From Kitasatospora arboriphila (GTDB taxonomy: Bacteria > Actinomycetota > Actinomycetes > Mycobacteriales > Mycobacteriaceae): a stretch of DNA of 64,000 bases. The position numbers and the translations under genes were made by a program. Each line of letters opens with the position of its first letter. Positions within the stretch are counted from its first letter, which is position 1. Location: contig NZ_JNYV01000010.1 of the NCBI RefSeq assembly GCF_000717275.1, forward strand, positions 62,001 through 126,000, read 5' to 3'. Below the pieces are notes generated by a model. It saw nothing but the letters and a program-made list of their open reading frames with translations. It ran no database searches and was not told where the DNA came from. Shown here piece after piece: positions 997 through 20,910 of this stretch.

Positions 997-1013
997 TACT
1001 ACGCCTGATAGTA
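997..1013. promoter_or_regulatory. BlaI-type operator upstream of copC-like gene
   Basis: TACTA-CGCCTGA-TAGTA, extended to AAATACTA and TAGTATTT arms. It is 10 bp from the start of the copC-like gene. This is one of ten copies of the same 17-bp palindrome in the first 21 kb. Confidence 0.8.
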
Positions 1014-1179
1014 TTTGCGACAATCGGTGACCCTTCTCACTCAAAGATTCGTGAGACCGATGACCACCTCCGCAACTGCTGGCTTTGCATGACTGAATTG
1101 TCGCTCGCCTGCGACCAAGGGAGGCCACCATTGGGGTAGGTCGAGGGCGCGGCCTTGCAGTTTGAATGCTGAAGGCTGT

Positions 1180-2856
1180 CTAGGTGGGCAGTTGGTTCGG
1201 TAGTGCCTTGTCGGCTGGTCCGTCGACAAGAGCGTCCACCATCCGGGTGAAGTTTTCGCCCCATCCGGCTTGGTCGGTTCGGGCCAGCCCGGCCATTTCG
1301 ACGGTGCATCGAGGATGCTCGGGTCCGGGTGTGGGTGTGATTCGAGCCCAGATCCGTCGGCGTTTGATCAGCAGGGAGATCAGCAGGCCGCCGAGCATGG
1401 CAATCGAGGACGCCAGCACCCATTTCTGGGCGGGATCGTGCGATACCTGCAGCGATACCCAGCGTTGGTAGCCGTCGAATTGGACGACTGTTCCGTCCGG
1501 CAGGCGGGTGTCTTGGCCGGCGAGGAGGTTGACGCGTTCTATTTTGAGGAGCCGGCCTTGGTTGATCATGTCGACGTTGAGGCTGTAAACATTTTGCGGT
1601 CGGCCTGTATCGAGTCCGGTGTCGCCCTGATAGATGTCGATGGCCACAGCCGGGTTGTCCGGGATCGGCCACGCCGAGGTCATCAAGCCGCCGTTGAAGA
1701 CTGCGGTGGGTGCGAACAGTCCTTCCACGGCGATCTGTTTTGTCCGCCGCTCGTCCTCGTCGGGATACAGGCCAGCTGGCGTGTCGAAACGTGCTGCTCC
1801 ACTAGACATCATTGTTTGCAGTTCGTCGGGCTGAAACGGGACGGTCTGGGTGCGGGTGCGGCCGTCAGGGAAAGTGACGGTGAACGTGGGCGCGAAGCCG
1901 TGGCCTAACAGGTAGACCCGATCGCCGGCCACGCGCAGTGGGTCGTTGACCTGGAGCGCTCGCTCGTTCCATTCATTCTTCGAGATCTCGTTGCCGCTCT
2001 GATATTTCAGGGTGGCGGTGTACATGTCGGGTTGTCCGGTCTCGAGGTAGCTGGCTTCAAACGCCTGCACCTGAATGCAGAACTCGTTGAGGCTGGTGCC
2101 GTCGACGAGATTGCCGGCTCGGAACGAGTCGTACACGGCAGTGGAGGTGTTGCACAAGCCTTCTTGCCCGTCGGCAACCAAGATGCGGGTGCCCTCGTAG
2201 CCGAACATCTTGCCCGCGGCGATCGCCACGAGCAGGGCGAGCAACGAAAAGTGAAAGACGAGGTTGCCGAACTCCCGCAGGTACCCTTTCTCGGCCGACA
2301 CTTCCACTACAGTGACCGAACCACGCTCTGAGCCAGGCCCGTGCACCGTGCGCACCGTTGTGCGCCACCCTTTTAGCCGTTGTTGGATTAGGGCTGCGGT
2401 CTGCTCGGGTGTGCCATCGGTGTCGCGAACTTCGTGCCGTGGCATCCGTGCAAGGTTGCGAGGTGCGGCGACCGGCCGAGCCCGTAGCGACTTGGCATGT
2501 TCGGCGATGCGGGGGGTCAGGCATCCCACCAGTGAGATGAACAGCAAAGCGTAGATGGAGGTGAACCAGATGCTGGAGAAGACATCGAACATCTGAAGTC
2601 TGTCTAGAACGTCACCCACGGCGCCGTTGTCGGCGATGTACTGGGTGGTCTTCGTAGCGTTGAGGTCTCGCTGCGGCAGCAGGGCCCCGGGTACAGCAGC
2701 AATAGCGAGCAAGAACAGCAGTGCTAGGGCGGTGCGCATGGAGGTCAGTGACCGCCACAGGTTCCGGGCGGGCCAGAACAGGTAACGCTGCAAGTGCCGG
2801 GTCGCACGCTGGCGATCTGGCCGAGGCTTAATCAGTGTCGGCGTTGTCGTACTCAC
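1180..2856 (-). CDS. resB: ResB-family cytochrome c maturation protein
   Basis: A 558-residue ResB (Ccs1) protein. Membrane helices lie near residues 40-60, 95-115, 200-220 and 480-500, with a large extracytoplasmic region between the third and fourth. The family works with CcsA/CcsB to deliver haem and attach it to reduced apocytochrome c outside the membrane. No ccsA-like gene is next to it, so it must use a chromosomal partner or work differently. The GTG start overlaps the stop of the upstream TlpA-like gene (GTGA), and the operon order is ctaD, tlpA-like, resB. The start is set by that overlap. Confidence 0.88.
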   Translation of the reverse strand: MSTTTPTLIKPRPDRQRATRHLQRYLFWPARNLWRSLTSMRTALALLFLLAIAAVPGALLPQRDLNATKTTQYIADNGAVGDVLDRLQMFDVFSSIWFTSIYALLFISLVGCLTPRIAEHAKSLRARPVAAPRNLARMPRHEVRDTDGTPEQTAALIQQRLKGWRTTVRTVHGPGSERGSVTVVEVSAEKGYLREFGNLVFHFSLLALLVAIAAGKMFGYEGTRILVADGQEGLCNTSTAVYDSFRAGNLVDGTSLNEFCIQVQAFEASYLETGQPDMYTATLKYQSGNEISKNEWNERALQVNDPLRVAGDRVYLLGHGFAPTFTVTFPDGRTRTQTVPFQPDELQTMMSSGAARFDTPAGLYPDEDERRTKQIAVEGLFAPTAVFNGGLMTSAWPIPDNPAVAIDIYQGDTGLDTGRPQNVYSLNVDMINQGRLLKIERVNLLAGQDTRLPDGTVVQFDGYQRWVSLQVSHDPAQKWVLASSIAMLGGLLISLLIKRRRIWARITPTPGPEHPRCTVEMAGLARTDQAGWGENFTRMVDALVDGPADKALPNQLPT

Positions 2857-3542
2857 AGCGTGAGTCCGAGATGGGTATTGACTGCTTGGATCAACTCGTC
2901 CGTGGAGGCGAAGACCTGGGGCAGAACGGCAGCGACCGAACCATCAGCGCGCACAAGGACCGTCGAAGGATAGACGCGGGGAACACCCAGTGCGGCGGCC
3001 ATCGCTGCGTCGGTGTCCACCACGGTGGGTAGATCCACACCAATGTCAATCAGCAAGTTCAGTGAAAGAAACGGATTCTGCGCGCCGTCGCTGCCTTGCA
3101 CAGTTAGAACGTTGACGCGATCACCAGCAACGCGATCGAATTCGGCGAAGATCGGCAGCTCCTTGCGGCAGGGCGCGCACCAGTAGGCCCAAAAATTGAT
3201 CACCCACATGGCGCCCGCGGTCGCGTTTCCGAGATCAACGTCCGAACCGTCCGACAAGCAGGGCACCCTCACACCTGCCAAGACCGAACTCGGGCGGGGT
3301 GTCTCGGTGCCCGATGGGCACGGGCTAAGGGCGGCCTTTTCTCGAGCGGCAGCCAGCTCTTCTGTGGGCACCTCAGCCTGCTCGCCGGGGAAAGCCTCCA
3401 AGGATTTAGTGCTGCCCGGGTTCGCCGCCGGACCCGGGTCTGTTGCATCACGCGGCCAAATCGCTGCTATCAATGCGAGCACCACAATTAGAGCGGCAAC
3501 TGTCCACCGAGTTGATGAAGACGTTGCGAGCCTTTGTCGCAT
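2853..3542 (-). CDS. Membrane-anchored TlpA-like thioredoxin
   Basis: A 229-residue protein with an N-terminal anchor (about residues 12-30) and a thioredoxin fold carrying W-C-A-P-C at residues 121-125. TlpA/ResA-type thioredoxins reduce apocytochrome c or copper-site cysteines of oxidase assembly factors outside the membrane. Its ATG lies 5 bp after the ctaD stop, and its end overlaps the resB start, so the three are translated as one unit. Extra cysteines at about 75 and 95 may form a structural disulfide. This suits the supply of reduced CXXCH or copper-site thiols to the oxidase encoded upstream. Confidence 0.85.
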   Translation of the reverse strand: MRQRLATSSSTRWTVAALIVVLALIAAIWPRDATDPGPAANPGSTKSLEAFPGEQAEVPTEELAAAREKAALSPCPSGTETPRPSSVLAGVRVPCLSDGSDVDLGNATAGAMWVINFWAYWCAPCRKELPIFAEFDRVAGDRVNVLTVQGSDGAQNPFLSLNLLIDIGVDLPTVVDTDAAMAAALGVPRVYPSTVLVRADGSVAAVLPQVFASTDELIQAVNTHLGLTL

Positions 3543-3547
3543 TACTT

Positions 3548-5317
3548 TTACGTATTCGGGTCGGTTGACGATTCGTGAGTGCCAACCGTGAGCGGTTCGC
3601 GGCGAGCCTCTTCTGTCTTCTTGCTGCCGTGTCCCTTACCGACGTGGGCTTCAGCGCGCATACGGTCGACCATGTGCGGGTAGTGCAGCTCGAATGCGGG
3701 ACGCTCGGAACGGATTCGGGGCAGTTCGGTGAAGTTGTGGCGTGGCGGTGGGCAGCTGGTCGCCCACTCTAGCGAGTTACCGAATCCCCAGGGGTCATCG
3801 ACGGTAACGACCTCACCATATCGGTAGCTACGAAACACATTCCACAGGAATGGCAGCGTCGATGCGCCGAGAATAAATGCACCGACGGAGGAGACTATAT
3901 TCAGTGCGGTGAATCCGTCCGAGGCCAGGTAGTCGGCGTAGCGGCGTGGCATGCCTTCGTTGCCGAGCCAGTGCTGCACGAGGAATGTGGTATGGAACCC
4001 GATGAAGGTGAGCCAGAAATGGATCTTTCCAAGCTTTTCATCGAGCATGCGTCCGGTGATCTTGGGGAACCAGAAGTATATACCTGCGTAAGTAGCGAAC
4101 ACGATGGTGCCGAATAGGACGTAGTGGAAGTGCGCGACCACGAAGTAACTGTCCGAGAGCTGAAAGTCCAATGGTGGGCTGGCTAGCAGCACGCCGGTCA
4201 AGCCGCCGAACAGGAAGGTGACCAGGAACCCGATCGAGAACAGCATGGGGGCTTCGAAGGTGAGGTTTCCTTTCCACAGGGTGCCGATCCAGTTGAAGAA
4301 CTTCACCCCGGTGGGTACTGCGATGAGGAAGGTCATGAACGAGAAGAACGGCAGCAATACCGCTCCCGTGGCGTACATGTGGTGGGCCCACACCGCCACT
4401 GACAGTGCCGCGATCGCCAGGGTGGCGTAGATCAATCCGGTGTACCCGAAGATCGGTTTGCGGGCGAAGACGGGGAAGATCTCTGAGACGATTCCGAAAA
4501 ATGGCAGGGCGATGATGTACACCTCGGGGTGGCCGAAGAACCAGAACAAGTGCTGCCACAGAAGCGCGCCGCCGTTGGCGGGATCGAAGATGTTGCCGTC
4601 GAATTGCCGATCGAACTCCAGGGCCAGCAATGCCGCTGTCAACAGCGGAAACGCCAGCAAGATCAGCACACTGGTCACCAAGATGTTCCAGGTGAAGATC
4701 GGCATCCGGAACATCGTCATACCCGGCGCTCGTAGACACACCACCGTGGTGATCATGTTGACTGCCCCCAGGATGGTGCCCAACCCCGAAACCACAAGCC
4801 CCAAGATCCACATATCAGCACCAGGGCCCGGCGAGTGCACAGCGTCGGTCAACGGGGTGTAAGCGGTCCAGCCGAAGTCCGCAGCGCCGCCCGGGGTCAT
4901 AAAGCCGGCCAACGCGACACTCGATCCGAACACGAAAAGCCAGAAGCTCATCGCGTTGAGGCGCGGAAACGCAACATCAGGGGCGCCGATTTGCAACGGC
5001 AGCACGACGTTCGCGAAGCCGATGACGATCGGGGTCGCATACATCAAGAGCATCACGGTGCCGTGCATGGTGAACATCTGGTTGTACTGCTCAGTGGACA
5101 GGAACTGCAACCCCGGTGCAGCTAGTTCGGTCCGAATCAACAGAGCCATCAATCCGCCGATGAGGAAGAACGCGAAGCACACCACCAGGTACATCACGCC
5201 TAGCGTCTTGTGATCGGTGGTGGTGAGCATCTTGTAGATGAACGACCCTTTCGGGCCGGTACGAGCCGGGAACGGCCGCGCCGGTTCCACTTTCGCTGGT
5301 TCGTCCAAAAGACTCAT
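3548..5317 (-). CDS. ctaD: Cytochrome c oxidase subunit I (aa3 type)
   Basis: Haem-copper oxidase catalytic subunit of about 589 residues with twelve predicted helices. The redox-site ligands are all visible: the haem a His in TMHGTVMLL, the CuB His and cross-linked Tyr in GHPEVY, the HH pair in WAHHMYATG, and HFHYV for the haem a3/a ligands. It therefore looks catalytically intact. It reduces oxygen at the membrane; subunits II and III are not encoded here. ATG at 5317 was chosen over an upstream TTG at 5344 because of the GGTGA just before it. An operator lies 43 bp upstream. It is an accessory copy in an operon with tlpA-like and resB genes. Confidence 0.92.
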
Positions 5318-5360
5318 ATGATCACCCAACTCACCGAGAACCAATCAACCGTCACACAGA

Positions 5361-5377
5361 TACTATGCAGCATAGTA
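5361..5377. promoter_or_regulatory. BlaI-type operator upstream of ctaD
   Basis: TACTA-TGCAGCA-TAGTA, with the spacer itself near-palindromic (TGCAGCA). It lies 43 bp from the chosen ctaD start and should control the ctaD-tlpA-resB operon. Confidence 0.8.
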
Positions 5378-5437: not shown

Positions 5438-5465
5438 TACTAGCCCGGATAGTATCCGGGCTAGT
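5438..5465. promoter_or_regulatory. Operator-like palindrome overlapping a strong hairpin
   Basis: TACTA-GCCCGGA-TAGTA occupies 5438-5454. Overlapping it is a 12-bp perfect inverted repeat, ACTAGCCCGGAT (5439-5450) and ATCCGGGCTAGT (5454-5465), with a 3-nt loop. It sits about 60 bp upstream of the ctaD operator and could be a second operator, a terminator for leftward transcription from the DUF4229 gene, or both. Confidence 0.55.
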
Positions 5466-5576: not shown

Positions 5577-5855
5577 CTACTGGAGGAAGGAGTCGCGCAC
5601 GTTGCGTTCGGCGTCCACCGCAGCTATACCGTCATTGACCCGCTTGCGTAGGGGACGCAGAACGGATGCTGAAGCAGCAAGTGCGACGCCGAGTCCGCAC
5701 ATCATAGAAACGAAGAGGGGCACATCCACTCCCACCAGACGGCCACCGAAATAGACTATGGCCACCGTTAGGGCAACTGCACCCAACCGGGCACCGTTAA
5801 GAACGATGACGTCGCGGATCAGCCGACTAGAGGCAAAGTCATACACGCCGCACAT
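5577..5855 (-). CDS. DUF4229 small membrane protein
   Basis: A 92-residue protein with two membrane helices (LGAVALTVAIVYFGGRL and MMCGLGVALAASASVLRPL) followed by a basic R-K-R-V-N-x-x-I segment, the layout of actinobacterial DUF4229 proteins, whose function is unknown. A longer frame opens at 5933, but that would place the operator inside the coding sequence. The ATG at 5855 is only 2 bp from the operator, so the message may be leaderless. It stands alone between ctaD and the acyltransferase. Confidence 0.65.
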   Translation of the reverse strand: MCGVYDFASSRLIRDVIVLNGARLGAVALTVAIVYFGGRLVGVDVPLFVSMMCGLGVALAASASVLRPLRKRVNDGIAAVDAERNVRDSFLQ

Positions 5856-5857
5856 AC

Positions 5858-5874
5858 TACTATCTACTATAGTA
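5858..5874. promoter_or_regulatory. BlaI-type operator at the DUF4229 start
   Basis: TACTA-TCTACTA-TAGTA, containing the 12-bp perfect palindrome CTACTATAGTAG (5864-5875). A third TACTA begins at 5855. It abuts the start codon of the DUF4229 gene. Confidence 0.75.
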
Positions 5875-6153
5875 GCAACGTGCCAGCCCAGGCCCAGCAG
5901 GTGCCGGGCGCGCCACCACGACGCGAAAGGCACTTTCCCTCACTGGTATGGGTCTTGAAACCGAAGCTACCCGAGGGTGTCGGTGTTCGAGTTGCAACCC
6001 AGTTCTGGCCGTCTGATACACCTCTTCAGACCTGAAGCACGAGTTAACAGTGCCTGTTGATCTACCGCCAGCCGAAGTAGCAGTCTCGTCTGACATCGAT
6101 TAGCGGCCTTGACGTCGGCCGAGGCGTCCCACACAACCACTACGGCCTGTAAT

Positions 6154-6170
6154 TACTATGCGAAATAGTA
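6154..6170. promoter_or_regulatory. BlaI-type operator upstream of acyltransferase
   Basis: TACTA-TGCGAAA-TAGTA, flanked by AAT and TTATT. It is 75 bp upstream of the acyltransferase GTG and also upstream of nothing on the other strand, so it is assigned to the acyltransferase. Confidence 0.8.
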
Positions 6171-6245: not shown

Positions 6246-8444
6246 GTGGCACAACCGGGGACGGGCACCGCGCCGGCTACAACCGTGAAGCAAGACCTGG
6301 CCGTTCCCGTCGAGTCTCACCGCCTCGATCTTGACGGGCTGCGCGGGGTTGCGATCATGCTGGTCGCGTGCTTTCACATCTGGTTAGGCCGTGTCTCAGG
6401 CGGTGTTGATGTCTTCTTGGTGTTGTCGGGCTACTTTTTTGTCGGATCACTCCTGCGGCATGTCACTGCCAGCCAGGCGCCCTCCGCCGGCTGGTGGTTC
6501 ACGATTTCGCCAATCCCACGTCTGATCCGGTTGGTCCGCCGGTTAGTGCCGGCCTTGGCTGTGGTCCTGATCGCGGTCGTCATCGGAACTGTAGTCGTCT
6601 TCCCTCAGACGCGATGGCTCACTACAGGGCGTGAGGTTGTGGCCAGTGCGCTGTACTACCAGAATTGGTATCTGGCCTTCAGGTCCCAGGACTACACCGC
6701 TGCAAGTTCGGTCAACAGCCCGTTGCAGCACGTGTGGTCCATGGCAGTGCAGGGCCAGTATTTTGTTGTCACATTGGTCACGGGACTTTGTATCGGCGCT
6801 CTGCTCAAGCTCGCCGCCCGTAAAGTCTCGGCTGCGGCACATCCAGCGGTTTTACGCGTAATGGTAGGCATTGCGATCACTGGTGTGGCGGCGGTGTCGC
6901 TGTATTGGGCGACGATGCGGATGGAGGTCAACCAGCCGTTCAACTACTACGACACCGTTGCCCGAACCTGGGAACCGCTGGCCGGCGGTCTCATGGCTGT
7001 CTGGGCTCCGACGATCAAGTCTTGCCGGCTGCGCAGCGCGATGGCATTCACCGGCCTAGGGCTAATTCTGACCAGCGGCTGGTGGATAGACGGACTGCGA
7101 AGCTATCCTGGGCCCTGGGCCCTGGTCCCGGTCTTGGCCACGATGGCGCTAATTCTGTCCGGGAGCGTGAGTCGCGCGGCCGCAGGCAGTACAGGTACTC
7201 CCGTTAACCGGCTACTGGCAACCGCTGTCCCAGTCTGGTTGGGATCGATCGCCTACGCGATGTACTTATGGCACTGGCCGCTGCTGATATTTTATTTGTC
7301 CTGGAGCAAGTCCAATCATGCCGGCGTTGTTGGCGGCCTATTCGTTCTGAGCACGTCGATCGCTCTGGCATGGGGAACCTGCCGGTTTATCGAGCAACCC
7401 CTACGCGCGGGCTCGCACACCGCGCTTTCGACTGCGTCGTGCGACGTCACTGAGCAGGGTGGCCAGCTACGTCGTCGCAGACCCATGACGTACACGAGCG
7501 TCACCGTAAGTCTGCTGCTCGTCGGAGTGCTGGCCTGCGGCGTTGCTATCAAAGTTTGGGACCATCATGTCAGTAGCCTTCGCGTCGACACTGCAAATCT
7601 CGACCCGACAATTTACCCTGGAGCTCGCGCCCTGCTCGACGGCATGCCAGTGGCACCCGTCGATCCGCAACCGTCGCCGCTCGAAGTGGTCAAAGACCTC
7701 CCCATCACATCGCTGCGGGGAGAAATTAGCGATTTCGCCGACCCGGAGGTCCGCGTGGGCACTTACGGAGATACCACCGCCAGCCGCACGATCGCGCTGG
7801 CCGGCGGGTCGCACTCCGAATTTTGGATTACTGCACTCGATGAGTTGGGAAAGAGAAACAATTTTAAGGTCACCACTTATCTCAAAATGGGATGCCCACT
7901 GTCAACCGACCCTATGCCCACCCAGCGGGGCGTTCCCTACCCCGGCTGTTTCGATTGGGTTCAACGAGCCATGCAACAGATCATCGCGGATCGTCCAGAC
8001 GCTGTCTTCACCACCACGACCCGACCTCGCGACACTGCTCCGGGAGACTGGGTTCCCCCGACCTATTTGCCAATCTTCGCCCGATTCGCCGCTGCGGGCA
8101 TCCCCGTACTCGGCATGCGCGATACTGTCTGGCCGCACAACGACGACGGTCTCATCGATACCCCAACGTGTTTGGCCGAAGGCGGCAGCGCAAACGACTG
8201 CGGCACCCCACGATCGCTCGCGCTCGAACCGACCAATCCAACATTGGCGATCCTCGCCTCCAACCCCAACGTGTTGCCGCTAGACCTATCTGAAGGTTTA
8301 TGCAATAAGAGCATGTGCCCCGCTGTGATCGGCAACATTGTCGTATACCACGACTGGCACCATCTCAGCGCAACCTTCGTGCGGAGTCTGACACCAGAGT
8401 TGTGGCGACAGATGCGTACATCCGTGCCGTGGCTTACGCCGTGA
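6246..8444 (+). CDS. Acyltransferase-3 / SGNH fusion, cell-envelope O-acylation
   Basis: A 732-residue protein in two parts. Residues about 25-420 form an acyltransferase-3 membrane domain with about ten to eleven helices, opening with the typical RLDLDGLRGVAIMLVACFH and carrying the GGVDVFLVLSGYF loop. Residues about 450-730 form an extracytoplasmic SGNH-like domain with the block IALAGGSHSEFW and a late HDWHHLS. Such OafB/OatA-type fusions transfer acetyl groups to envelope sugars, for example peptidoglycan or surface glycans. The GTG start follows GGAGAGTAGGG. The operator 75 bp upstream ties it to the BlaI regulon rather than to routine wall synthesis. Codon use is visibly more A/T-rich than in genes after 12 kb. 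The acceptor is unknown. Confidence 0.85.
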   Translation: MAQPGTGTAPATTVKQDLAVPVESHRLDLDGLRGVAIMLVACFHIWLGRVSGGVDVFLVLSGYFFVGSLLRHVTASQAPSAGWWFTISPIPRLIRLVRRLVPALAVVLIAVVIGTVVVFPQTRWLTTGREVVASALYYQNWYLAFRSQDYTAASSVNSPLQHVWSMAVQGQYFVVTLVTGLCIGALLKLAARKVSAAAHPAVLRVMVGIAITGVAAVSLYWATMRMEVNQPFNYYDTVARTWEPLAGGLMAVWAPTIKSCRLRSAMAFTGLGLILTSGWWIDGLRSYPGPWALVPVLATMALILSGSVSRAAAGSTGTPVNRLLATAVPVWLGSIAYAMYLWHWPLLIFYLSWSKSNHAGVVGGLFVLSTSIALAWGTCRFIEQPLRAGSHTALSTASCDVTEQGGQLRRRRPMTYTSVTVSLLLVGVLACGVAIKVWDHHVSSLRVDTANLDPTIYPGARALLDGMPVAPVDPQPSPLEVVKDLPITSLRGEISDFADPEVRVGTYGDTTASRTIALAGGSHSEFWITALDELGKRNNFKVTTYLKMGCPLSTDPMPTQRGVPYPGCFDWVQRAMQQIIADRPDAVFTTTTRPRDTAPGDWVPPTYLPIFARFAAAGIPVLGMRDTVWPHNDDGLIDTPTCLAEGGSANDCGTPRSLALEPTNPTLAILASNPNVLPLDLSEGLCNKSMCPAVIGNIVVYHDWHHLSATFVRSLTPELWRQMRTSVPWLTP

Positions 8445-8720: not shown

Positions 8721-8737
8721 AACTAGCCAGGATAGTA
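8721..8737. promoter_or_regulatory. BlaI-type operator upstream of M23 peptidase
   Basis: AACTA-GCCAGGA-TAGTA: one mismatch (A for T at the first base) from the TACTA-N7-TAGTA pattern. It is 72 bp upstream of the TTG start of the M23 gene. Confidence 0.65.
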
Positions 8738-8809: not shown

Positions 8810-9991
8810 TTGGCACGACACCGCAGAACCGATCCGACACTGCCCGTTCCTGGCATGCTTGATCTTCGACCCGCCCGTGTGGTGGCCGCGCCGGCCCCCC
8901 TCGCCACCAGATCGAGGCGGTCACAGCAGACAGTCGCGCTGGTCCAACCTGGACGGCATCGACTGCCGGGCCCTTCCGAGCCACTTGCGCCCACTCAGAT
9001 TAAAACTGTCATGCCACCACACGCGTTGCGCTCTCGATCGACGAAAGCGCCCTCTGCGTTGACCTTTGCGACCCCGCCCGCCCGTCGCCATGCTGCCAGC
9101 CCTGACTATCAAGACTTCGCGCCGAGGCCTCGCCCACAGCACCCGATCATCGCCAATTATGGTTCAACCGCCCTGACACCCCTTGCCCCCTGGGAGCGGT
9201 CGCTGTGTGACGAGGCTGCTAGAGGCTGCGAGCTCGCGACAGCTAGTTTTTTGGAGCGGCTTGACAACAAGGACCTGCCGGGCACGTCGGCTCGATCGAC
9301 CACTGCTGCCGGCATCAGCGGCTCCCTCGTTGCCGCTGTGGTTTTGCTCGCGGCTGGGGGCACGGCGGCTACTGCACTCGCTGATCGACCCGATCTCGCA
9401 ATCACCCCGGTGGCCCAGACCATCAGCGAGCCCGTCACCGGCCAGCCCGTCACCTCGCCGCAGCCTTTCGCTGCCGCAAACACCCAAGAAGGCTCCCCCA
9501 CGTCGCCGCCGATACCGCCGCTCGATGAGCTGACCACAGCCATGCGGGACCTAGTCGAGCCAAAACAAGGGCTACCTCCCGAGCCGCCCGCGCCGCCGCG
9601 GCCGCGCTCAGCCGCACCCACCTACGGAACCTTGACATCGAGCTATGGGTCGCGCTGGAACACTACACACTACGGTCTTGACATAGCCAATACCATTGGC
9701 ACACCGGTGGTTTCGACCAGCGACGGTGAAATTATCGATTCAGGGCCCGCCGATGGCTTTGGGTTATGGATTCGCGTCCTCCAGGACGACGGAACGATCG
9801 GCGTGTATGGGCACATCAACGAGACATTGGTGAGTGTTGGACAACGGGTCTTGGCTGGCGAACAGATAGCGACGGTGGGAAACCGTGGCAATTCCACCGG
9901 TCCGCACCTGCACTTTGAGGTTTGGCAGCAAGACGGACTCAAACTCGACCCCGCACAGTGGCTAAGCAACCGGGGAATCGTAATCGAGTAG
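8810..9991 (+). CDS. Membrane-anchored M23 (LytM) peptidoglycan endopeptidase
   Basis: A 393-residue protein: a long basic, proline-rich cytoplasmic N-terminus, one membrane helix near residues 165-190, a proline-rich linker, and a C-terminal M23 domain (about 270-390). The zinc and catalytic motifs are intact: HYGLDIA (H-x3-D), GVYGH and PHLHFEV. The enzyme class cuts peptide stems or cross-bridges in peptidoglycan outside the membrane. The TTG start follows AAGGACATTTCC. The gene lies just upstream of the first BlaI/M56 pair and has its own operator. Its catalytic domain resembles that of the second M23 gene at 25479-26687, but the N-terminal halves differ. Confidence 0.85.
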   Translation: MARHRRTDPTLPVPGMLDLRPARVVAAPAPLATRSRRSQQTVALVQPGRHRLPGPSEPLAPTQIKTVMPPHALRSRSTKAPSALTFATPPARRHAASPDYQDFAPRPRPQHPIIANYGSTALTPLAPWERSLCDEAARGCELATASFLERLDNKDLPGTSARSTTAAGISGSLVAAVVLLAAGGTAATALADRPDLAITPVAQTISEPVTGQPVTSPQPFAAANTQEGSPTSPPIPPLDELTTAMRDLVEPKQGLPPEPPAPPRPRSAAPTYGTLTSSYGSRWNTTHYGLDIANTIGTPVVSTSDGEIIDSGPADGFGLWIRVLQDDGTIGVYGHINETLVSVGQRVLAGEQIATVGNRGNSTGPHLHFEVWQQDGLKLDPAQWLSNRGIVIE

Positions 9992-12904: not shown

Positions 12905-13201
12905 TCAGCTGATGTCGGGGACTCCGAGTGCGACCAGCATGGTCATGAGCAGCAGCCAGCCGATGCCTTGCCAAATCGGCCAGGTGCCGCCGCGCTTCCA
13001 GACGCGGTAGGTCTGGGCCAATGCGCCCAGCCCGCCGAGGAAGAAGATGGCCGGCGCCCCGAAACCCCAGATGGGCCAGCCGGTCTTGTTGTACAAGATC
13101 ACCGCGGCCAGACCTGCGGCCATGACGGTCGCGAGGTAGGCGCCGCCTGTGCGTAGGGCGGTGGGATCATTCCACGACTTGCTGACGTCGTCATCGTTCA
13201 C
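12905..13201 (-). CDS. Small three-helix membrane protein of unknown function
   Basis: A 98-residue protein with a short acidic N-terminus and three predicted helices (about 18-37, 45-65, 75-95). I do not recognise the family. It is the last gene of the ctaG - TlpA-like - this-gene operon, starting 23 bp after the TlpA-like stop, so a role in oxidase assembly or copper delivery is plausible by position only. Confidence 0.65.
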   Translation of the reverse strand: MNDDDVSKSWNDPTALRTGGAYLATVMAAGLAAVILYNKTGWPIWGFGAPAIFFLGGLGALAQTYRVWKRGGTWPIWQGIGWLLLMTMLVALGVPDIS

Positions 13202-13224: not shown

Positions 13225-13839
13225 TCAGGTTTCGTCGGCCAGGCGTTGCACGACGGGCAAGAGATCCGCGGCGGTGACCGCCCGCAAAAACACCGCCGCC
13301 GCTCGGTGCTGGCGGTCCAAGACAACGGTGGTGGGTACCACTGACGTTGGGGTTCCCAGCGCGGCGAGGGTGCGTCCGTCGTAGTCGTAGATCGACGGGT
13401 AGGTCACCGCGCGGTCGACCACGAAATCGCGGGCTGTTTCTTTGCGGTCTCGAAAGTCGATCCCCAAGAACGCAACTCCGCGTTCTTTGGTTTGGGCGTA
13501 GACCTCTTCGAGTACCGGGGCCTCAGCGCGGCAGGGTCCGCACCATGAGCCCCACACGTTGATCACGACCACTTGCCCGGTGTAGTCGTCCAGGCGAATG
13601 GTCTTCTGATCAGCGAACAGATCGGGGCCACGCAGCGCGGCAACCTTCTGGCGACTGGCGGGCGGATCGTAGAAGATGACAGTTTGCCCGTTCGGGGAAA
13701 CGAACTCGAACGAATCGCCTTGGCGGACCGCATCATCGCCGGTACCGCACCCAGCGAGGGCCAGTGTGAGGGCCGCCACCACCGCGATGGCCCATCGCCA
13801 CCTGGGGCGCGACGGTGGTGACGATGTCGTGGTGGTCAT
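13225..13839 (-). CDS. TlpA-like thioredoxin lipoprotein
   Basis: A 204-residue lipoprotein: signal peptide with lipobox LALAGC (Cys at 31), then a thioredoxin fold with W-C-G-P-C at about 99-103 and a later cis-Pro (TSVVPTT). It should act on thiols at the outer face of the membrane. It overlaps the ctaG stop (ATGA), suggesting it reduces the copper-site or CtaG-associated cysteines during oxidase assembly. It is distinct in sequence from the TlpA-like protein at 2853-3542, which is membrane-anchored rather than lipidated. Confidence 0.87.
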   Translation of the reverse strand: MTTTTSSPPSRPRWRWAIAVVAALTLALAGCGTGDDAVRQGDSFEFVSPNGQTVIFYDPPASRQKVAALRGPDLFADQKTIRLDDYTGQVVVINVWGSWCGPCRAEAPVLEEVYAQTKERGVAFLGIDFRDRKETARDFVVDRAVTYPSIYDYDGRTLAALGTPTSVVPTTVVLDRQHRAAAVFLRAVTAADLLPVVQRLADET

Positions 13840-14894: not shown

Positions 14895-14939
14895 TTGACT
14901 GTGTACCGCGGTGGTGTTGCTGTGACCGGGGCCTGCTGA
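14895..14939 (+). CDS. Possible 14-residue leader peptide ending in Cys
   Basis: A TTG-started frame preceded by GAGGAG at 14882-14887 (7-bp spacing) encodes fM-T-V-Y-R-G-G-V-A-V-T-G-A-C and stops in TGATG overlapping the DsbA start. Alternatively, ATG at 14890 with the same ribosome binding site gives only Met-Thr-stop. A translated leader ending in Cys immediately before a disulfide enzyme would allow coupling or cysteine-dependent control. This is inference from sequence layout only. Confidence 0.3.
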   Translation: MTVYRGGVAVTGAC

Positions 14940-15577
14940 TGAGCCGTAGCGTTAAGGTCACCTTGGGGGTGGTGTTTGCATTCTGCCTGGCTTTGACCGC
15001 AGTGTTCGTGGTGACCCGGGCCGGTGACACCGCTACCGAGTCCGACGGCGCGGTGGTGCGTTCGGACTCGCAACGGTTGACCTCGCCGGCGGACTCTGAG
15101 GCCACGTTCGTCGAGTTCCTAGACTTTGAATGTGAGGCGTGTGGGGCCATGTACCCCGCCGTGGAGCAACTGCGCCAAACGTACGGTGACAGGGTCACGT
15201 TCGTGGTTCGATACTTTCCGTTGCCGGGCCATTTCAACGCCGACCGGGCGGCGCGGGCGGTGGTCGCGGCTGCGAACCAGGGCCGGTTTGAGGCGATGTA
15301 CCGGAAGATGTTCGACAGCCAAAAACAGTGGGGTGAACAGCAGGTGCCGTTGGATGATTTGTTCGCGTCCTACGCCGCCGACCTCGGCCTGGACATGACT
15401 CAGTTCCAGGCCGACTACACATCGTCGGCCACACGTGCGCGCATCGATGCCGACCTGCGCGACGGCGCCGAACTGGGGGTCCGCGGCACCCCAACTTTCT
15501 TCATCAACGATGCCGAGGTGCAGGCCGGCAGCTACGACGACCTCAAGACCGCCCTGAACGACGCTCTGGCACAGTGA
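14939..15577 (+). CDS. DsbA-like membrane-anchored thiol oxidase
   Basis: A 212-residue protein with an N-terminal anchor (about 7-26) and a DsbA-type fold: DFECEACG gives the C65-x-x-C68 active site, and RGTPTFFIN supplies the cis-proline loop. DsbA proteins form disulfides in exported proteins and are re-oxidised by DsbB or VKOR. The next gene is a VKOR homologue starting in a 4-bp GTGA overlap, so the pair is a complete oxidative folding system. It shares its control region with ctaG. Placement in the BlaI regulon suggests a need for disulfide repair when copper or oxidant stress affects exported thiols. Confidence 0.9.
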   Translation: MSRSVKVTLGVVFAFCLALTAVFVVTRAGDTATESDGAVVRSDSQRLTSPADSEATFVEFLDFECEACGAMYPAVEQLRQTYGDRVTFVVRYFPLPGHFNADRAARAVVAAANQGRFEAMYRKMFDSQKQWGEQQVPLDDLFASYAADLGLDMTQFQADYTSSATRARIDADLRDGAELGVRGTPTFFINDAEVQAGSYDDLKTALNDALAQ

Positions 15578-17071: not shown

Positions 17072-17121
17072 CTGCGTCCCCCTCGCTGTTTCGTGCACAC
17101 ACCGGACACAGCCACCCTAAC

Positions 17122-17138: not shown

Positions 17139-17199
17139 GTTGAATTCGGGGTGCCCTCGTGGCCCCACGGACAGACTGCGTATCCCCGGGGGGACCAGG

Positions 17200-18462
17200 T
17201 TAGAGCGCGCTGCCGGCTACCCAGGTGTCCCAGGGCACGCTCCAGTCGCCGTTTTGCCACAGTTCCAAGGCAGGCCCGCCGGTGTTGCGTACTTCGACGA
17301 CGTCGCCGGTGACCGAGAAGTCGTAGAACCACCGGGCGTTGTCGGGGTTGAGGTTGAGGCAGCCGGCGGACATGTTGGTATTGCCTTGCTGGGCAATGGT
17401 ATCGACGAGCTCGTGCAAGTAGATACCGTCGTTGCTGATGCGGGTGGCGTAGTTGATCGATTGGCGATATCCGAGTCGAGAGTTCACCGGTAGCCCGTAG
17501 GTGGAGGAGTCCATGATGACCGGATTGGCCTTGTCCAGGACGGTGTAGATGCCCGGCTGAGTCCAAAAGTGGATGGTGCGGCCGTTCACCGTTTCGGTGC
17601 CGCCGCGGCCCATCGAGGTCGGCATGGTGCGCACCAGTTCCCCGTTGGCGTACACCGATACCTGCTTGGTGGTGTCATCGGCAATCGAGACGTGGGCATC
17701 GCCGATCGTGAAGGACACGCGCACGTCTTCTTGGCCGTATAGTCCGTTGCCCAGGTCCACTCCGTAGACGTCGGCTGCCACGGTGACCGCGGTGCCCGGT
17801 GCGTAGTAGTCGCGGGGCCGGTAGTGCGCGGTCTGATCATCGATCCAGTTCCATTGCCCTTCGACCGCCGGCTCGGTCTGCACTGACAGCGCTCGTTGGG
17901 CCGCGGCCCGGTCGGTGATCGGCTCATCGAACCGTACGGCCACCACCAGCCCTACCCCGTAGGCGCGTCCGGAACTGAGCGTGCCGCCGCCAGTCGTCAA
18001 CAGCGACGGTTGCGTCAGGTTGTTCGGTGCGACCGTGGTGAACGCACTGGTGTGGTCGGCGGTCCGGCCTTGGGCGTCGGTACTTGTTGCGACCAGCTCA
18101 TAGGTTTTGTTGTAGCCCAACGGCGTATCGGGTTTCCATGTCAGCCGGTCGGGGGTCATGATCCCTGGGATGAGGCGACCGTCGTCGTTGGTCATCACCA
18201 CCTCCGCCAGGGTGCCGCCGGTGACGGTCACCATCACCGCGGTGAGCGGGTCGACATCGCGGGCACCGGGCGCGGGAGCAAATGTCACGGCGGGCGCGTC
18301 CACCGATGCCGACGCCCCCGAACGCGACGGCGGTGAGGAGGATCCCCCGTTACTGGAAGAGCACGCTGCTGCCACGCCAGTGATCAGCGCGCCGGCCCCG
18401 GCCACGAGCACACTCCGGCGATTGAGCTGCACCCCATTCCACCCAGACCGCTGCGTCGGCAC
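17200..18462 (-). CDS. L,D-transpeptidase-like lipoprotein, variant active site (copy 1)
   Basis: A 420-residue protein with an N-terminal RRSVLVAGAGAL signal and a lipobox-like VAAAC, then two Ig-like domains (about 60-270) and a C-terminal YkuD catalytic domain, the LdtMt2 layout. These enzymes make 3-3 cross-links in peptidoglycan. The catalytic Cys is present, but the usual [ST]HGC-x-N motif reads SAGCLN, so the His before Gly is Ala. The upstream HS of LdtMt2-type enzymes reads HE. Both duplicated-island copies (28498 and 50565) share these changes. GTG at 18462 was chosen: GGAGGA lies 9 bp upstream, against none for GTG at 18471. The operator is 23 bp upstream. Confidence 0.88.
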   Translation of the reverse strand: MPTQRSGWNGVQLNRRSVLVAGAGALITGVAAACSSSNGGSSSPPSRSGASASVDAPAVTFAPAPGARDVDPLTAVMVTVTGGTLAEVVMTNDDGRLIPGIMTPDRLTWKPDTPLGYNKTYELVATSTDAQGRTADHTSAFTTVAPNNLTQPSLLTTGGGTLSSGRAYGVGLVVAVRFDEPITDRAAAQRALSVQTEPAVEGQWNWIDDQTAHYRPRDYYAPGTAVTVAADVYGVDLGNGLYGQEDVRVSFTIGDAHVSIADDTTKQVSVYANGELVRTMPTSMGRGGTETVNGRTIHFWTQPGIYTVLDKANPVIMDSSTYGLPVNSRLGYRQSINYATRISNDGIYLHELVDTIAQQGNTNMSAGCLNLNPDNARWFYDFSVTGDVVEVRNTGGPALELWQNGDWSVPWDTWVAGSAL

Positions 18463-18485
18463 TAAGAACACTCCTCCGTCGTGAC

Positions 18486-18502
18486 TACTAGGACGATTAG
18501 TA
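18486..18502. promoter_or_regulatory. BlaI-type operator upstream of L,D-transpeptidase
   Basis: TACTA-GGACGAT-TAGTA, with outer GAC and GTTT. It is 23 bp upstream of the chosen GTG start, so repression would block the promoter directly. Confidence 0.8.
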
Positions 18503-18796
18503 GTTTACGGAACCAGAGCGGACATACCGGACACCGACGAAAACATTCGACAGGCCACGTTACGGGATCTCAACCCTGATTGAACCAAGGTCGGGAATTG
18601 CCGGCTATCCACTTGCGGTAACGAGACGGTGCGCCACCGCACCACGCGGTGGTGGGAGTTTGCCGTCGGGTGCGGCAGTGGAACCGATGGAGGGCGGCAC
18701 AGAAAACTCGATCCGGTGCAATGGTTAGGCAGCTGCGGCGTCGAGGTCGGATGAGCCTCGGTGGACGGGCCCCGACGTGGCAGAGACAATAAAGGT
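18503..18796. other. Intergenic stretch before second BlaI gene
   Basis: About 290 bp with no supported gene. No TACTA-N7-TAGTA site was found before the repressor gene, unlike its neighbours, so this repressor may not control itself through the same sequence. Confidence 0.4.
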
Positions 18797-19159
18797 ATGA
18801 AACGGCTGGGAGCACTCGAAGCGGACGTCATGGACGTCCTGTGGAGCGCCGGACCGCAACCGCAGTCGGTGCACGATATCCTCGATGCTCTTGCGGATCG
18901 GCAGTTGGCGTACACCACCATCTTGACCGTCGTGACGAACCTGCACACCAAGGGTTTCCTCAACCGCGTCAAGGTGAGCCGTGCGTACCTGTACTCACCG
19001 GTGCAGACCAGGGAAGAAGCCACCTCCCAGGCCCTGCGAGACATCCTCGATCGCAGTGACGATTCGGCGGCGGTGCTGATGCATTTCGCCCAAACCGCCA
19101 CCCCCGCAGAACAAGACGCTCTACGGAAAAGTCTTCGCACCAAGCAGGCTCGGCGGTGA
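18797..19159 (+). CDS. BlaI/MecI/CopY-family repressor (copy 2)
   Basis: A 120-residue winged-helix repressor, MKRLGALEADVM, with the segment RQLAYTTILTVVTNLH almost matching that of copy 1 (10034-10396), so both may read the same operator. ATG at 18797 follows AAAGG. Its stop overlaps the GTG of the following M56 gene (GTGA). It has no CopY-type metal hook. The near-identical recognition helix suggests redundancy or cross-talk between the two pairs. Confidence 0.88.
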   Translation: MKRLGALEADVMDVLWSAGPQPQSVHDILDALADRQLAYTTILTVVTNLHTKGFLNRVKVSRAYLYSPVQTREEATSQALRDILDRSDDSAAVLMHFAQTATPAEQDALRKSLRTKQARR

Positions 19160-20127
19160 CCCTGGCCCTCACCCTGGGACTGGCCGCGGCACTGATCGCA
19201 GTGCTGATGCCGCGGCTGTTGCTGCGTCCCCTGGCGACCACCGCGCCCAGGTCGATGGTCGCGCTCTGGCTGGGCAGTATCGCCGCGTTCTTCCTCCTCG
19301 CCGTCTCGGCGGTGGTCGTGGCCGCCTGGCCCCGCCACGCTCCCGGAGAAAGCCTCACCGACGTGTGGATCCGCTGTTTGAGCTCAGCGCAACACACCAT
19401 GCGTCCCTGGGTCACCGAGATCATCATCTCGGTCGCAGTGGCCGTGGCTTCCTATATCGCGGTTCGGGTCGCGATCGTCAGCAGTCGCCACCGTCGCTCG
19501 CGCCTTCAACTATTGGACTATCACCACGACATCGTGACCGTGCTGGCGCGCACCGGCCAGCAGGACGGGCCGTACCCGATCCTGTGGCTCGATCATCCAT
19601 TGCCCTTCGCCTACAGCATCGCCGGCAACCCCGGATTCGTCGTCGCCACCGAAGGCCTGAAAAAGTGTTTGACCTCCTCAGAGGCTCAAGCCGTACTCGA
19701 CCACGAAAGGGCCCACCTCAACGGCCGCCACCACCGCATCCTCGCAGTCTGCGAAGTGCTGGCCAGCGCGCTGCCGTTCGTGCCGTTGATGACCCAAGCG
19801 CCGACCGCGATCGCGGCCCTGGTCGAACTCGACGCCGATCAGACCGCCGCCACCGCCAGTGGCGCCGCAGTCCTACGGTCAGCGTTGAGCCGGGTTATCG
19901 AACAACAACAAAGCACAATCACCCCCCGCCCCAGCCAGGGCTGCGCCACGCACAGAGCCCACACCACCACCGACCGCCGACTACGCACCCTGGGTGCTCC
20001 CCTCACCCCACACCCGACCGCGCTGACCTACACCGCGTACGCCGTGATGCCCGCGGCCATCGCGGCCACCGCCGCAGTGGCGACCATGGCCGCGCTCTCA
20101 GCCCTCTTCTGCACCATCGTGTCCTGA
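19156..20127 (+). CDS. M56-family membrane metalloprotease (BlaR1-like, no sensor domain; copy 2)
   Basis: A 323-residue paralogue of the protein at 10393-11370: the same helix layout, HERAH zinc motif in AVLDHERAHLNGRHH and ELDAD downstream, and no extracellular penicillin-binding domain. It presumably cleaves the coupled repressor. It is richer in histidines near residues 115-125 and at the protease helix, but no clear copper site is visible. Its 3' end overlaps the end of the convergent copC gene by 30 bp. Confidence 0.85.
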   Translation: MTLALTLGLAAALIAVLMPRLLLRPLATTAPRSMVALWLGSIAAFFLLAVSAVVVAAWPRHAPGESLTDVWIRCLSSAQHTMRPWVTEIIISVAVAVASYIAVRVAIVSSRHRRSRLQLLDYHHDIVTVLARTGQQDGPYPILWLDHPLPFAYSIAGNPGFVVATEGLKKCLTSSEAQAVLDHERAHLNGRHHRILAVCEVLASALPFVPLMTQAPTAIAALVELDADQTAATASGAAVLRSALSRVIEQQQSTITPRPSQGCATHRAHTTTDRRLRTLGAPLTPHPTALTYTAYAVMPAAIAATAAVATMAALSALFCTIVS

Positions 20128-20883
20128 CCTATCGCCCTTCGGAGGCTGATCAGAGTCAGGAGTTGGCGATGCCGGGGGTTGCGGCGTCGTCGCTGAAGGC
20201 TCCGCCGGCGGCGGCACTGCCTTGTTGTGGTCATCCTTGTCGTGGTCATCGCGGGAGTGCAGCACCAACAGCAGCGCAATCGCGCCCAACCCCGCCACGA
20301 CCAGAACGATCACCACCATCACCACCCAGTTATCTGCCAGCTTGCCCTCGGGATCATCGCCGGGATGCAAACCTGTTGACGGACTTGTCGACGCCGGCAC
20401 ACCCGTCACCGTGCCCGCTGGCGGTGGCGGTTCAACACCTGTCGCCGAGGGCACCGACGCGGTCGGCGCTGACGACGACGGGGCCACCGAAAAAGCGACC
20501 TGGCCCGTGATCGGATGTCCGTCCGCAGAGACCACCCGGTAATTCACGGTGTAGGCACCCGAACCCAGAGCGGTTTGCACCTTGACACTGACCTGCGCTC
20601 CGGTGACCGCCGGGGCAGATACCTGCACCGGCTCGCCCTCAGTGCTCAGGACCGCTACCTCGGCAAAATTTTTGGAGATGGACTGGTTGAACACCAAATC
20701 AATCGTTGCCGGAGCCTGTTCCAGGACCGCCCCATCGGTCGGGGTCGACGATGTCAGCGCACTATGCGCCGACGCCTGCCCCACACCCAGCAGCAACGTG
20801 CCCACTGCGGCGAGCGCGGCAATCGCGACCAGCCTTCCTACAGTCACCAGCCATGACGCGCGTCCAGATTCGTGTTGTCCCAC
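20098..20883 (-). CDS. copC: CopC-domain copper-binding protein (intact site)
   Basis: A 261-residue exported protein: signal peptide ending ASA, mature start HSALTSSTP, a CopC domain whose late loop reads SADGHPITG, a proline-rich linker, a membrane helix near 192-212, then a charged His/Asp-rich C-terminus (RDDHDKDDHNK). The N-terminal His plus D-G-H give the Cu(II) site expected for CopC. It probably holds copper at the outer membrane face or hands it on. GTG start; the operator lies 10 bp upstream. The cytoplasmic acidic His tail could also bind metal. Confidence 0.9.
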   Translation of the reverse strand: MGQHESGRASWLVTVGRLVAIAALAAVGTLLLGVGQASAHSALTSSTPTDGAVLEQAPATIDLVFNQSISKNFAEVAVLSTEGEPVQVSAPAVTGAQVSVKVQTALGSGAYTVNYRVVSADGHPITGQVAFSVAPSSSAPTASVPSATGVEPPPPAGTVTGVPASTSPSTGLHPGDDPEGKLADNWVVMVVIVLVVAGLGAIALLLVLHSRDDHDKDDHNKAVPPPAEPSATTPQPPASPTPDSDQPPKGDRSGHDGAEEG

Positions 20884-20893
20884 GCCGCGAAAC

Positions 20894-20910
20894 TACTATA
20901 CGAAGTAGTA
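20894..20910. promoter_or_regulatory. BlaI-type operator upstream of copC
   Basis: TACTA-TACGAAG-TAGTA with arms AACTACTA and TAGTAGTT, 10 bp upstream of the copC GTG. The arrangement is identical in spacing to the site at 997-1013. Confidence 0.82.

What the first reader, a model, noticed from the sequence alone, without database searches (positions are those of the whole stretch)
997..20910. A ten-site BlaI-type regulon joins copper, respiration, disulfide and cell-wall genes
The sequence shows ten TACTA-N7-TAGTA palindromes (997, 5361, 5438, 5858, 6154, 8721 with one mismatch, 14856, 17122, 18486, 20894), nearly all 2-75 bp before a start codon, and none elsewhere that I noticed after 21 kb. 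Two BlaI/M56 pairs lie inside the same 20 kb. The controlled genes cover CopC, cytochrome oxidase subunit I, ResB, CtaG, two TlpA-like thioredoxins, CcdA, DsbA/VKOR, an O-acyltransferase, an M23 peptidase and an L,D-transpeptidase. BlaI-family repressors binding palindromes is established; that this set forms one copper or envelope stress response on a mobile region is inference and may be undescribed.
Basis: partly seen in the sequence, partly recalled or inferred. Interest (0 to 1): 0.85.

Follow-up and report, generated by a model that had tools for sequence, protein, structure and literature searches.

The report
Plasmid BlaI regulon for envelope repair
A large bacterial plasmid carries about twenty genes for breathing, copper handling, disulfide bonds and cell wall that share one predicted on/off DNA switch, and the matching sensor has a predicted outward-facing cysteine that its core chromosomal cousins lack, giving a testable idea of what such sensors detect.

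Summary
Nine exact TACTA-N7-TAGTA palindromes and one with a mismatch lie in 20 kb (under 0.001 exact copies expected), nearly all at gene starts. The genome (Williamsia sp.) holds 11 exact copies; the two outside the window lie before cydA and the ATP-synthase genes, promoters that M. tuberculosis BlaI is reported to bind, so the palindrome is very likely a BlaI operator. The window lies on a ~148-kb circular plasmid with conjugation genes, shared almost unchanged, over the stretches compared, with another Williamsia species. The same operator precedes the same gene families, in changing order, in many other actinobacterial loci, several on named plasmids. In other actinobacteria most reduced loci keep BlaI, a protease and an operator before dsbA. 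The paired M56-like protease has no penicillin sensor; its predicted outside loop has a cysteine and a histidine in 22 of 22 close relatives, and a cysteine in 0 of 7 core-type ones. Operator-bearing ctaD genes are not one clade, so ctaD was captured or exchanged repeatedly. Best reading: a mobile accessory branch of the BlaI regulon that answers extracytoplasmic thiol or copper damage with replacement parts. The regulon is well supported by sequence; the signal is inference. Nothing was tested at the bench.

The parts
997..1013 (.). operator before copC (387-986, minus)
   Evidence: exact match, profile score 30.2, 19 bp from start
387..986 (-). CopC-domain protein 1
   Evidence: PF04234 57 bits
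1180..2856 (-). ResB, third gene of the ctaD-tlpA-resB run
   Evidence: PF05140 478.2 bits
2853..3542 (-). TlpA/redoxin-like protein
   Evidence: PF08534 45.2 bits
3548..5344 (-). CtaD, aa3-type cytochrome oxidase subunit I
   Evidence: PF00115 542.1 bits; NF050116 1012 bits over cut-off 880
5361..5377 (.). operator 1 before ctaD
   Evidence: exact, 35.4, 25 bp
5438..5454 (.). operator 2 before ctaD
   Evidence: exact, 24.0, 102 bp
5577..5933 (-). DUF4229 protein; real start probably the ATG 2 bp after operator 5858
   Evidence: PF14012 48.9 bits; sequence
5858..5874 (.). operator before DUF4229
   Evidence: exact, 27.5
6154..6170 (.). operator between DUF4229 and acyltransferase
   Evidence: exact, 31.7, 84 bp to acyltransferase
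6246..8444 (+). AT3-SGNH acyltransferase, SucT-like
   Evidence: PF01757, PF19040; NF058601 728 bits, below cut-off 1275
8721..8737 (.). operator (one mismatch) before the M23-blaI1-M56 run
   Evidence: 24.8, 81 bp
8810..9991 (+). M23 peptidase, first gene of regulator run 1
   Evidence: PF01551 97.2 bits
10016..10396 (+). BlaI1 repressor
   Evidence: PF03965 78.7 bits
10393..11370 (+). M56-like membrane protease 1 with HExxH and loop Cys/His
12905..13201 (-). small protein after tlpA2
   Evidence: open frame, GC3 0.87; only a sub-threshold Pfam match
13225..13839 (-). TlpA-like protein 2
   Evidence: PF00578 69 bits
13836..14780 (-). CtaG-type oxidase assembly protein
   Evidence: PF09678 249.6 bits
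14856..14872 (.). operator between ctaG and dsbA
   Evidence: exact, 26.5, 84 and 75 bp
14939..15577 (+). DsbA-like thioredoxin
   Evidence: PF13462 78.3 bits
15574..16224 (+). VKOR
   Evidence: PF07884 136.4 bits
16265..17098 (-). CcdA
   Evidence: PF02683 32.8 bits
17122..17138 (.). operator before ccdA
   Evidence: exact, 34.5, 32 bp
17200..18471 (-). Ig-domain L,D-transpeptidase
   Evidence: PF17964, PF03734
18486..18502 (.). operator between L,D-transpeptidase and blaI2
   Evidence: exact, 25.9, 23 and 267 bp
18761..19159 (+). BlaI2 repressor
   Evidence: PF03965 86.3 bits; best PDB hit 2g9w 5.1e-18
19156..20127 (+). M56-like membrane protease 2
20098..20883 (-). CopC-domain protein 2
   Evidence: PF04234 89.1 bits
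20894..20910 (.). operator before copC2
   Evidence: exact, 30.5, 19 bp

Best explanation
A plasmid-borne accessory branch of the actinobacterial BlaI regulon. BlaI1/BlaI2 dimers sit on AACTACTATG-NNN-CATAGTAGTT-like operators at promoters and hold them off (inferred from family and operator). The paired M56-like membrane protease lacks a penicillin sensor; its predicted outside loop carries a conserved Cys and His. When extracytoplasmic thiols are damaged, most likely by copper or other thiol-loving metals or by oxidants, that loop changes state and the inner zinc site cuts BlaI at the conserved His-Phe/Asn-Phe site (inferred from S. aureus BlaR1). The released genes supply parts of the machinery outside the membrane: disulfide traffic (DsbA/VKOR/CcdA/TlpA), a second cytochrome oxidase subunit I with assembly factors (CtaD, CtaG, ResB), CopC, and wall/envelope enzymes (L,D-transpeptidase, M23, SucT-like acyltransferase). 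Shown by computation: operators, their recurring gene links, the plasmid, the loop residues, repeated ctaD capture or exchange. Inferred: binding, cleavage, signal.
For: 146 exact operators in 58 unthinned loci (1.10 Mb) around BlaI relatives, 0.007 expected; spacer 7 gives 146 hits, the next, spacer 10, gives 25. Three loci (L075-L077) were picked knowing pattern hits. Profile hits: 0 in 117.6 kb of control DNA. Operator within -40..250 bp of the start in a set thinned of 11 near-copies: CtaD 17 of 19, DsbA 19 of 25, DUF3105 8 of 9, CopD/CtaG fusion 13 of 17, CDF 12 of 17, CopC 11 of 16, L,D-transpeptidase 13 of 19, Lnt 7 of 11; against CopA-type ATPase 1 of 16, ArsR 0 of 15. Williamsia: 6 of 9 genomes have island-type BlaI and 8-12 sites, 3 of 9 lack it and have exactly 2. 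Sites at cydA/atp/core blaI in 17 of 20 chromosomal copies that I chose to examine, agreeing with reported M. tuberculosis BlaI binding at cyd and atp promoters (PMC5473688). Loop Cys74 and His80 in 22 of 22 close proteases; loop Cys in 46 of 51 accessory-like against 0 of 7 core-like. Reduced loci: operator before DsbA in 11 of 15. Operator-bearing ctaD not one clade (p-AU 9.1e-5; 7.6e-11 after dropping seven long or uncertain rows).
Against: No binding, cleavage or expression data for this element. Which repressor binds which site is unknown: the core BlaI and the two plasmid BlaIs share half-sites. Copper ATPases are outside the regulon. In the window the CDF transporter has no operator. 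At their own start CtaG and CcdA had an operator in only 8 of 19 each, M23 in 22 of 44, ResB 4 of 8, LspA 3 of 8, DUF305 2 of 21, VKOR 0 of 12, BlaI 5 of 40 (some are downstream in runs). Mycolicibacterium plasmids have BlaI beside ctaD but weak or no ctaD operators. Five of 51 accessory-like proteases lack the loop Cys, and 3 of 58 BlaI rows have an operator without it; loop His occurs in 4 of 7 core-like ones. The profile was trained on exact sites in the same loci. The loop's position rests on hydropathy and analogy to BlaR1; no structure was obtained.
Confidence: 0.6

Rival explanations
1. It is a beta-lactam/peptidoglycan-damage regulon like classical BlaI-BlaR: wall damage is sensed and the wall enzymes are the main output, respiration being adjusted as in M. 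tuberculosis.
For: Repressor family and closest solved relative (2g9w, M. tuberculosis BlaI); L,D-transpeptidase, M23 and acyltransferase under operators; M. tuberculosis BlaI reported at blaC, cyd and atp promoters (PMC5473688 passages).
Against: No penicillin-binding sensor in the 323-325-residue proteases. BlaC-like serine hydrolases in related loci carry no operator (0 of 6). Reduced loci mostly control DsbA, not wall genes.
Confidence: 0.17
2. It is a plain copper-resistance regulon, the actinobacterial counterpart of CopY operons.
For: Two CopC genes and CtaG here, and CopC and CopD/CtaG fusions elsewhere, under operators; metal ATPases, Nramp and an arsenite-type set nearby on the plasmid.
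Against: CopA-type ATPases 1 of 16 and ArsR 0 of 15 with operator; BlaI1/2 reach 34.7 and 38 bits against the CopY cut-off of 121.95; BlaI2 has no cysteine and BlaI1 one, so no CopY-like metal site (that motif is recalled).
Confidence: 0.18
3. The operators belong mainly to the chromosomal BlaI; the plasmid BlaIs act only as modulators or decoys.
For: Same TACTA/TAGTA half-sites at core targets.
Against: Core sites have C after TACTA in 31 of 34 half-sites against 31 of 268 on islands, and AA at -3,-2 in 2 of 34 against 148 of 268; recognition helices differ in step. The core sample was chosen by me, so the contrast may be inflated. Site clusters track island-type BlaI in Williamsia.
Confidence: 0.05

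Closest known systems
M. tuberculosis BlaI-BlaR (Rv1846c-Rv1845c) regulon
   Same: Repressor family and closest solved relative; protease partner without sensor domain and targets cyd and atp, as reported in PMC5473688 (passages), matching the two core sites here.
   Different: Chromosomal; operator flanks of the core type differ; core-type proteases here have no loop Cys (0 of 7); targets are core bioenergetics and blaC, not a mobile set of spare parts.
S. aureus BlaI-BlaR1 / MecI-MecR1
   Same: Repressor family, HExxH membrane protease, extracellular loop between helices 2 and 3, cleavage site N101-F102 aligned with H-F here (PMC9834060 passages).
   Different: No penicillin-binding sensor domain; no beta-lactamase or drug target seen among the operator-linked genes of the window.
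CopY/TcrY copper repressors
   Same: Same broad Pfam family PF03965; linked to copper genes.
   Different: Below the NCBIfam equivalog cut-off; lacks cysteines for direct metal sensing (the CopY cysteine motif is recalled).
Copper-induced mobile lit2/lgt2 operon of Listeria and Enterococcus
   Same: Mobile copper-induced element with a second copy of lipoprotein-processing enzymes (PMC8275575 passages); here LspA and Lnt on related islands carry the operator (3 of 8 and 7 of 11).
   Different: Its regulator was not named in the passages read; the set here is far wider, with cytochrome oxidase and disulfide genes.

Membership tests
BlaI/MecI/CopY repressor family (PF03965) | Penicillinase_R domain over the curated cut-off | tested here: met
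   78.7 and 86.3 bits against 22.6
BlaI/MecI/CopY repressor family (PF03965) | Dyad operator at target promoters | tested here: met
   binding itself not tested
BlaI/MecI/CopY repressor family (PF03965) | Cleavage site (N-F type) of the repressor | tested here: inconclusive
   H-F aligned with S. aureus N-F; cleavage not tested
CopY/TcrY (TIGR02698) | Equivalog score | tested here: not met
   34.7 and 38 bits against 121.95
BlaR1/MecR1 receptor | HExxH membrane protease | tested here: met
   HERAH in both; H183, E184, H187 invariant in 42 rows. Pfam gives M48, not M56; 'M56' is the name in the annotation of relatives
BlaR1/MecR1 receptor | C-terminal penicillin-binding sensor | tested here: not met
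   325 and 323 residues, no such domain found
BlaR1/MecR1 receptor | Extracellular loop between helices 2 and 3 | tested here: inconclusive
   hydropathy fits, charge only weakly for protease 2; no structure obtained
Core mycobacterial BlaI regulon | Operators at cydA and atp promoters | tested here: met
   met for the chromosome: both non-window sites of this genome and 16 of 20 chosen sites; the island is an added branch, not a member of that core set

The most novel reading that the evidence does not exclude
A conserved Cys-His pair in the outside loop turned the beta-lactamase-type repressor/protease pair into a sensor of extracytoplasmic thiol or metal damage. Plasmids then assembled an inducible kit of replacement envelope and respiratory parts under one operator, repeatedly drafting ctaD from host lineages. 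The ancestral output is the disulfide pair DsbA-CcdA.
Probability: 0.5. Interest if true: 0.88.

Novelty: new variant of a known kind. Interest (0 to 1): 0.78.

Why it matters
What BlaR-type proteases without a penicillin sensor detect is open: PMC5473688 says that, given the missing sensor domain, how M. tuberculosis responds to beta-lactams remains unknown (passages). This system gives a candidate sensing residue, a clean operator, a small disulfide-gene version and a large plasmid version, so the question can be tested in environmental actinobacteria. It also suggests that mobile metal-resistance elements carry inducible replacement parts for respiration and the envelope, not only pumps.

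Tried and rejected
Rejected: chance. Rejected: 6654 as an operator (coding, low profile score). Rejected: one origin of the operator-bearing ctaD; gene conversion between island and chromosome copies is not excluded. A first ctaD tree mislabelled L047 and L098 because long open frames hid their operators; one search corrects this and drops four edge rows. L103 is labelled 'no operator' there although one search found a weak one (18.0); one search drops L100, L102, L103 and the long rows L205, L206, L186, L057. Rejected: MobF relaxase (0 in G000); a MobA/VirD2-type relaxase is on the plasmid instead. The two non-window sites were first taken as background and proved to be core targets. Tsukamurella L099 has ctaD but no annotated BlaI and served as control DNA. 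No plasmid record covers 80% of window 1-21500 or of C10:1-20000. Led nowhere: paper searches for a description of this element (listings only). The original M. tuberculosis BlaI regulon paper (Sala 2009) was not read; it is known here through citing papers. The idea that copper inactivates L,D-transpeptidases was searched (listing only) and not read further.
Full report
Observation. The ten reported sites are present at the stated places, nine exact and one with a single mismatch. Shuffles expect 0.05 copies with up to one mismatch in 64 kb. A Markov expectation for the first 21 kb is 0.0006 exact copies, against 9. Operator centres lie 19-102 bp before the nearest gene start, and the 5858 site ends 2 bp before an ATG. 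A one-mismatch copy at 6654 is inside a coding region and is not counted.

Layout. With Pfam and the operator map, the runs are: copC1; ctaD-tlpA-resB with two operators; DUF4229; the acyltransferase; M23-blaI1-M56 behind 8721; ctaG-tlpA2-small protein and dsbA-vkor, divergent from 14856; ccdA; the L,D-transpeptidase divergent from blaI2-M56 at 18486; and copC2. Of the 20 genes that I annotated here, only the CDF transporter lacks an operator at itself or at the head of its run. That these runs are operons is inferred from spacing. Both repressor runs are thus probably self-regulated; the link of 18486 to blaI2 (267 bp) is the weaker one.

Genome-wide. The genome has 11 exact palindromes, nine in this window; the pattern read backwards, a control, occurs 6 times, so the clustering and position carry the signal, not the total. 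The other two lie before cydA and before the AtpI-AtpB genes. I examined 20 chromosomal copies, one from this genome and 19 from relatives, picked by hand from the capped listing, mostly from genomes with one or two sites: 11 precede cydA, 5 lie between wecA and the atp genes (in L108 and L112 the AtpB match is only 25-28%; in L123 only WecA matched), 1 precedes the core blaI, 3 were not assigned. PMC5473688 states, citing Sala 2009, that M. [quoted passage not shown] This agreement is the best evidence that the palindrome is a BlaI operator.

Core versus accessory. Among the 17 assigned core sites C follows TACTA in 31 of 34 half-sites, on islands in 31 of 268; AA at -3,-2 occurs in 2 of 34 and 148 of 268. 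Sites in related loci are not independent and the core sample was hand-picked, so the test values overstate certainty. Where the recognition helix could be read, repressors share AYTT (with few exceptions) and then mostly differ: [TD][NH]L in accessory ones.RL in core ones. The BlaI tree puts 47 mostly accessory rows apart from 11 mostly core rows (support 95/83; two loop-Cys rows fall on the core side); of 58 rows, 44 have loop Cys and an operator, 9 neither, 3 an operator only, 2 Cys only.

Spread. The three Penicillinase_R genes of this genome are the core one and the two here. In nine Williamsia genomes, six have island-type BlaI and 8-12 sites, three lack it and have exactly two sites. 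Named loci identify the genus: W. muralis NBRC 105860 carries a 99% identical BlaI2. BlaI2 relatives occur in 111 plasmid records, most often Rhodococcus (55). Across 58 loci (L038-L095, 1.10 Mb, near-copies included) there are 146 exact sites, 0.007 expected, 49 of 58 loci with at least one; L075-L077 were chosen knowing pattern hits and counts for some genomes were known, the rest were chosen by BlaI similarity. Spacer 7 gives 146 hits, spacer 10 gives 25, probably TACTACTA overlaps, and others at most 4. Three scrambled palindromes gave none.

Targets. A profile made from the non-redundant exact sites (134; the count used was not printed) was scanned at score 16; 117.6 kb of control DNA gave no hit. 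Genes were labelled by similarity to the annotated plasmid genes. In a set thinned of 11 near-identical loci, operators lie at CtaD 17 of 19, DsbA 19 of 25, DUF3105 8 of 9, CopD/CtaG fusion 13 of 17, CDF 12 of 17, CopC 11 of 16, L,D-transpeptidase (Ig type) 13 of 19, Lnt 7 of 11, TlpA 15 of 27, M23 22 of 44, CtaE 3 of 3, LspA 3 of 8, ResB 4 of 8, CtaG 8 of 19, CcdA 8 of 19; but CopA-type ATPase 1 of 16, ZntA-type 0 of 8, ArsR 0 of 15, CsoR 0 of 2, DUF305 2 of 21, MCO 1 of 10, VKOR 0 of 12, BlaI 5 of 40, M56 0 of 46. Named plasmids show the same gene families beside BlaI/M56 in different orders: Gordonia sp. 135, M. poriferae, R. fascians, M. gallinarum, M. vanbaalenii, R. opacus B4, R. ruber. 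The Mycolicibacterium plasmids are exceptions: their ctaD operators are weak or missing.

Minimal version. Of the 31 loci L146-L176 of the named scan, 15 have a clear operator (L146-L159, L164) and L170 a weak one; the others have none. In 11 of the 15 an operator lies before a DsbA-like gene, and in 8 of those 11 a CcdA-like gene was labelled beside it. Pfam confirmed DsbA in L150, L153, L159, L164 and L087 and CcdA in L159 and L087. This points to extracytoplasmic thiol handling as the shared output.

Sensor. The proteases have 323-325 residues, HERAH, and no penicillin-binding domain. Hydropathy of protease 2 gives segments at 1-28, 30-62 and 84-111, so the stretch 57-88 falls between the second and third; K+R counts in 57-88 and 105-125 are 1 and 6 in protease 1, 3 and 4 in protease 2. 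This matches the extracellular loop EL1 of S. aureus BlaR1 (PMC9834060 passages) but is not proof. In the 22 close proteins (BlaI identity at least 53%) Cys74, His80, Pro63 and Glu65 are invariant; loop Cys occurs in 46 of 51 accessory-like and 0 of 7 core-like proteins, loop His in 47 of 51 and 4 of 7. The accessory pair without Cys (L081, L082) has a single operator each; the gene after it in L082 is a large secreted-looking protein, not scanned against Pfam, and not an evident thiol gene; this is one small clade. The BlaR1 cleavage site N101-F102 aligns with H-F in BlaI1 and BlaI2.

Plasmid. Contig C10 (148,211 bp) and G006:C2 (151,946 bp) are circular permutations of each other: the aligned pieces of 500 bp or more in the end regions compared are 99.9-100% identical, with small gaps, and the first 76 bp of C10 repeat its last 76. 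It encodes a MobA/VirD2-type relaxase, a TraG/TraD-type coupling protein and a ParA-like protein. So the element is a circular plasmid, probably recently shared between Williamsia species.

ctaD. Other full-length ctaD copies in the Williamsia relatives are 86-90% identical to the window's, island copies 94-100%; in G008 no island-like copy was found. The own chromosomal copy is cut by a contig end. Operator-bearing ctaD (25 rows) against others (18 rows) cannot be held as one clade (p-AU 9.1e-5); with long and doubtful rows removed, 24 against 12, p-AU 7.6e-11 and at least three label changes forced. Repeated capture, or exchange with host copies, explains this.

Reading. The regulon, its BlaI assignment and its mobility are well supported by sequence. 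Repression, cleavage and the signal are inferred. Thiol or copper damage outside the membrane is favoured because the smallest loci mostly control DsbA(-CcdA), the sensor loop carries Cys and His, and the larger sets add parts that need thiols, copper or haem outside the cytoplasm, while pumps stay under other control.

Novelty. Ten answered searches of the paper library (top of each listing seen) showed no description of this element; the library holds open-licence papers only. Papers seen in passages: PMC8265638, PMC12565901, PMC4757040, PMC5874750, PMC9834060, PMC8275575, PMC8765290, PMC5473688.

Noticed in passing
L040:8529-9499 (G006): The second protease gene of the near-identical plasmid in G006 is split over two overlapping frames, so apparently broken by a frameshift; left as it is.
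   Followed up: no
upstream of ctaD in L183, L184, L185, L192, L194, L195, L202: Operator-free Williamsia ctaD genes have a different, more or less complete palindrome, CTACGA-N4-TCGTAG, before them; regulator unknown.
   Followed up: no
window 17200-18471, 28480-29724, 50439-51797: Three Ig-domain L,D-transpeptidases on one plasmid; only the first has the operator.
   Followed up: partly
window 41670-47347: Arsenic-type set: SBF carrier (ACR3-like), a pyridine nucleotide-disulfide oxidoreductase and an ArsA-type ATPase.
   Followed up: no
window 31998-36568 and 54027-58568: Two runs of large genes alike in size and order; three of the four are metal-type P-ATPases by Pfam, 56415-58568 was not scanned. 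Possibly a duplicated block.
   Followed up: no
window 59363-63336: Two adjacent large open frames (701 and 623 residues) without any Pfam match.
   Followed up: no
L108, L112: AtpB at the atp locus is only 25-28% identical to that of the window's genome in one Williamsia (G004) and one other genus (G016).
   Followed up: no
G000:C5:319433-319561: The chromosomal ctaD of this genome is cut by a contig end; in relatives G003, G004 and G006 two ctaD copies stand in tandem.
   Followed up: partly
L115, L118, L121: Three chromosomal palindromes without an assigned target gene.
   Followed up: no
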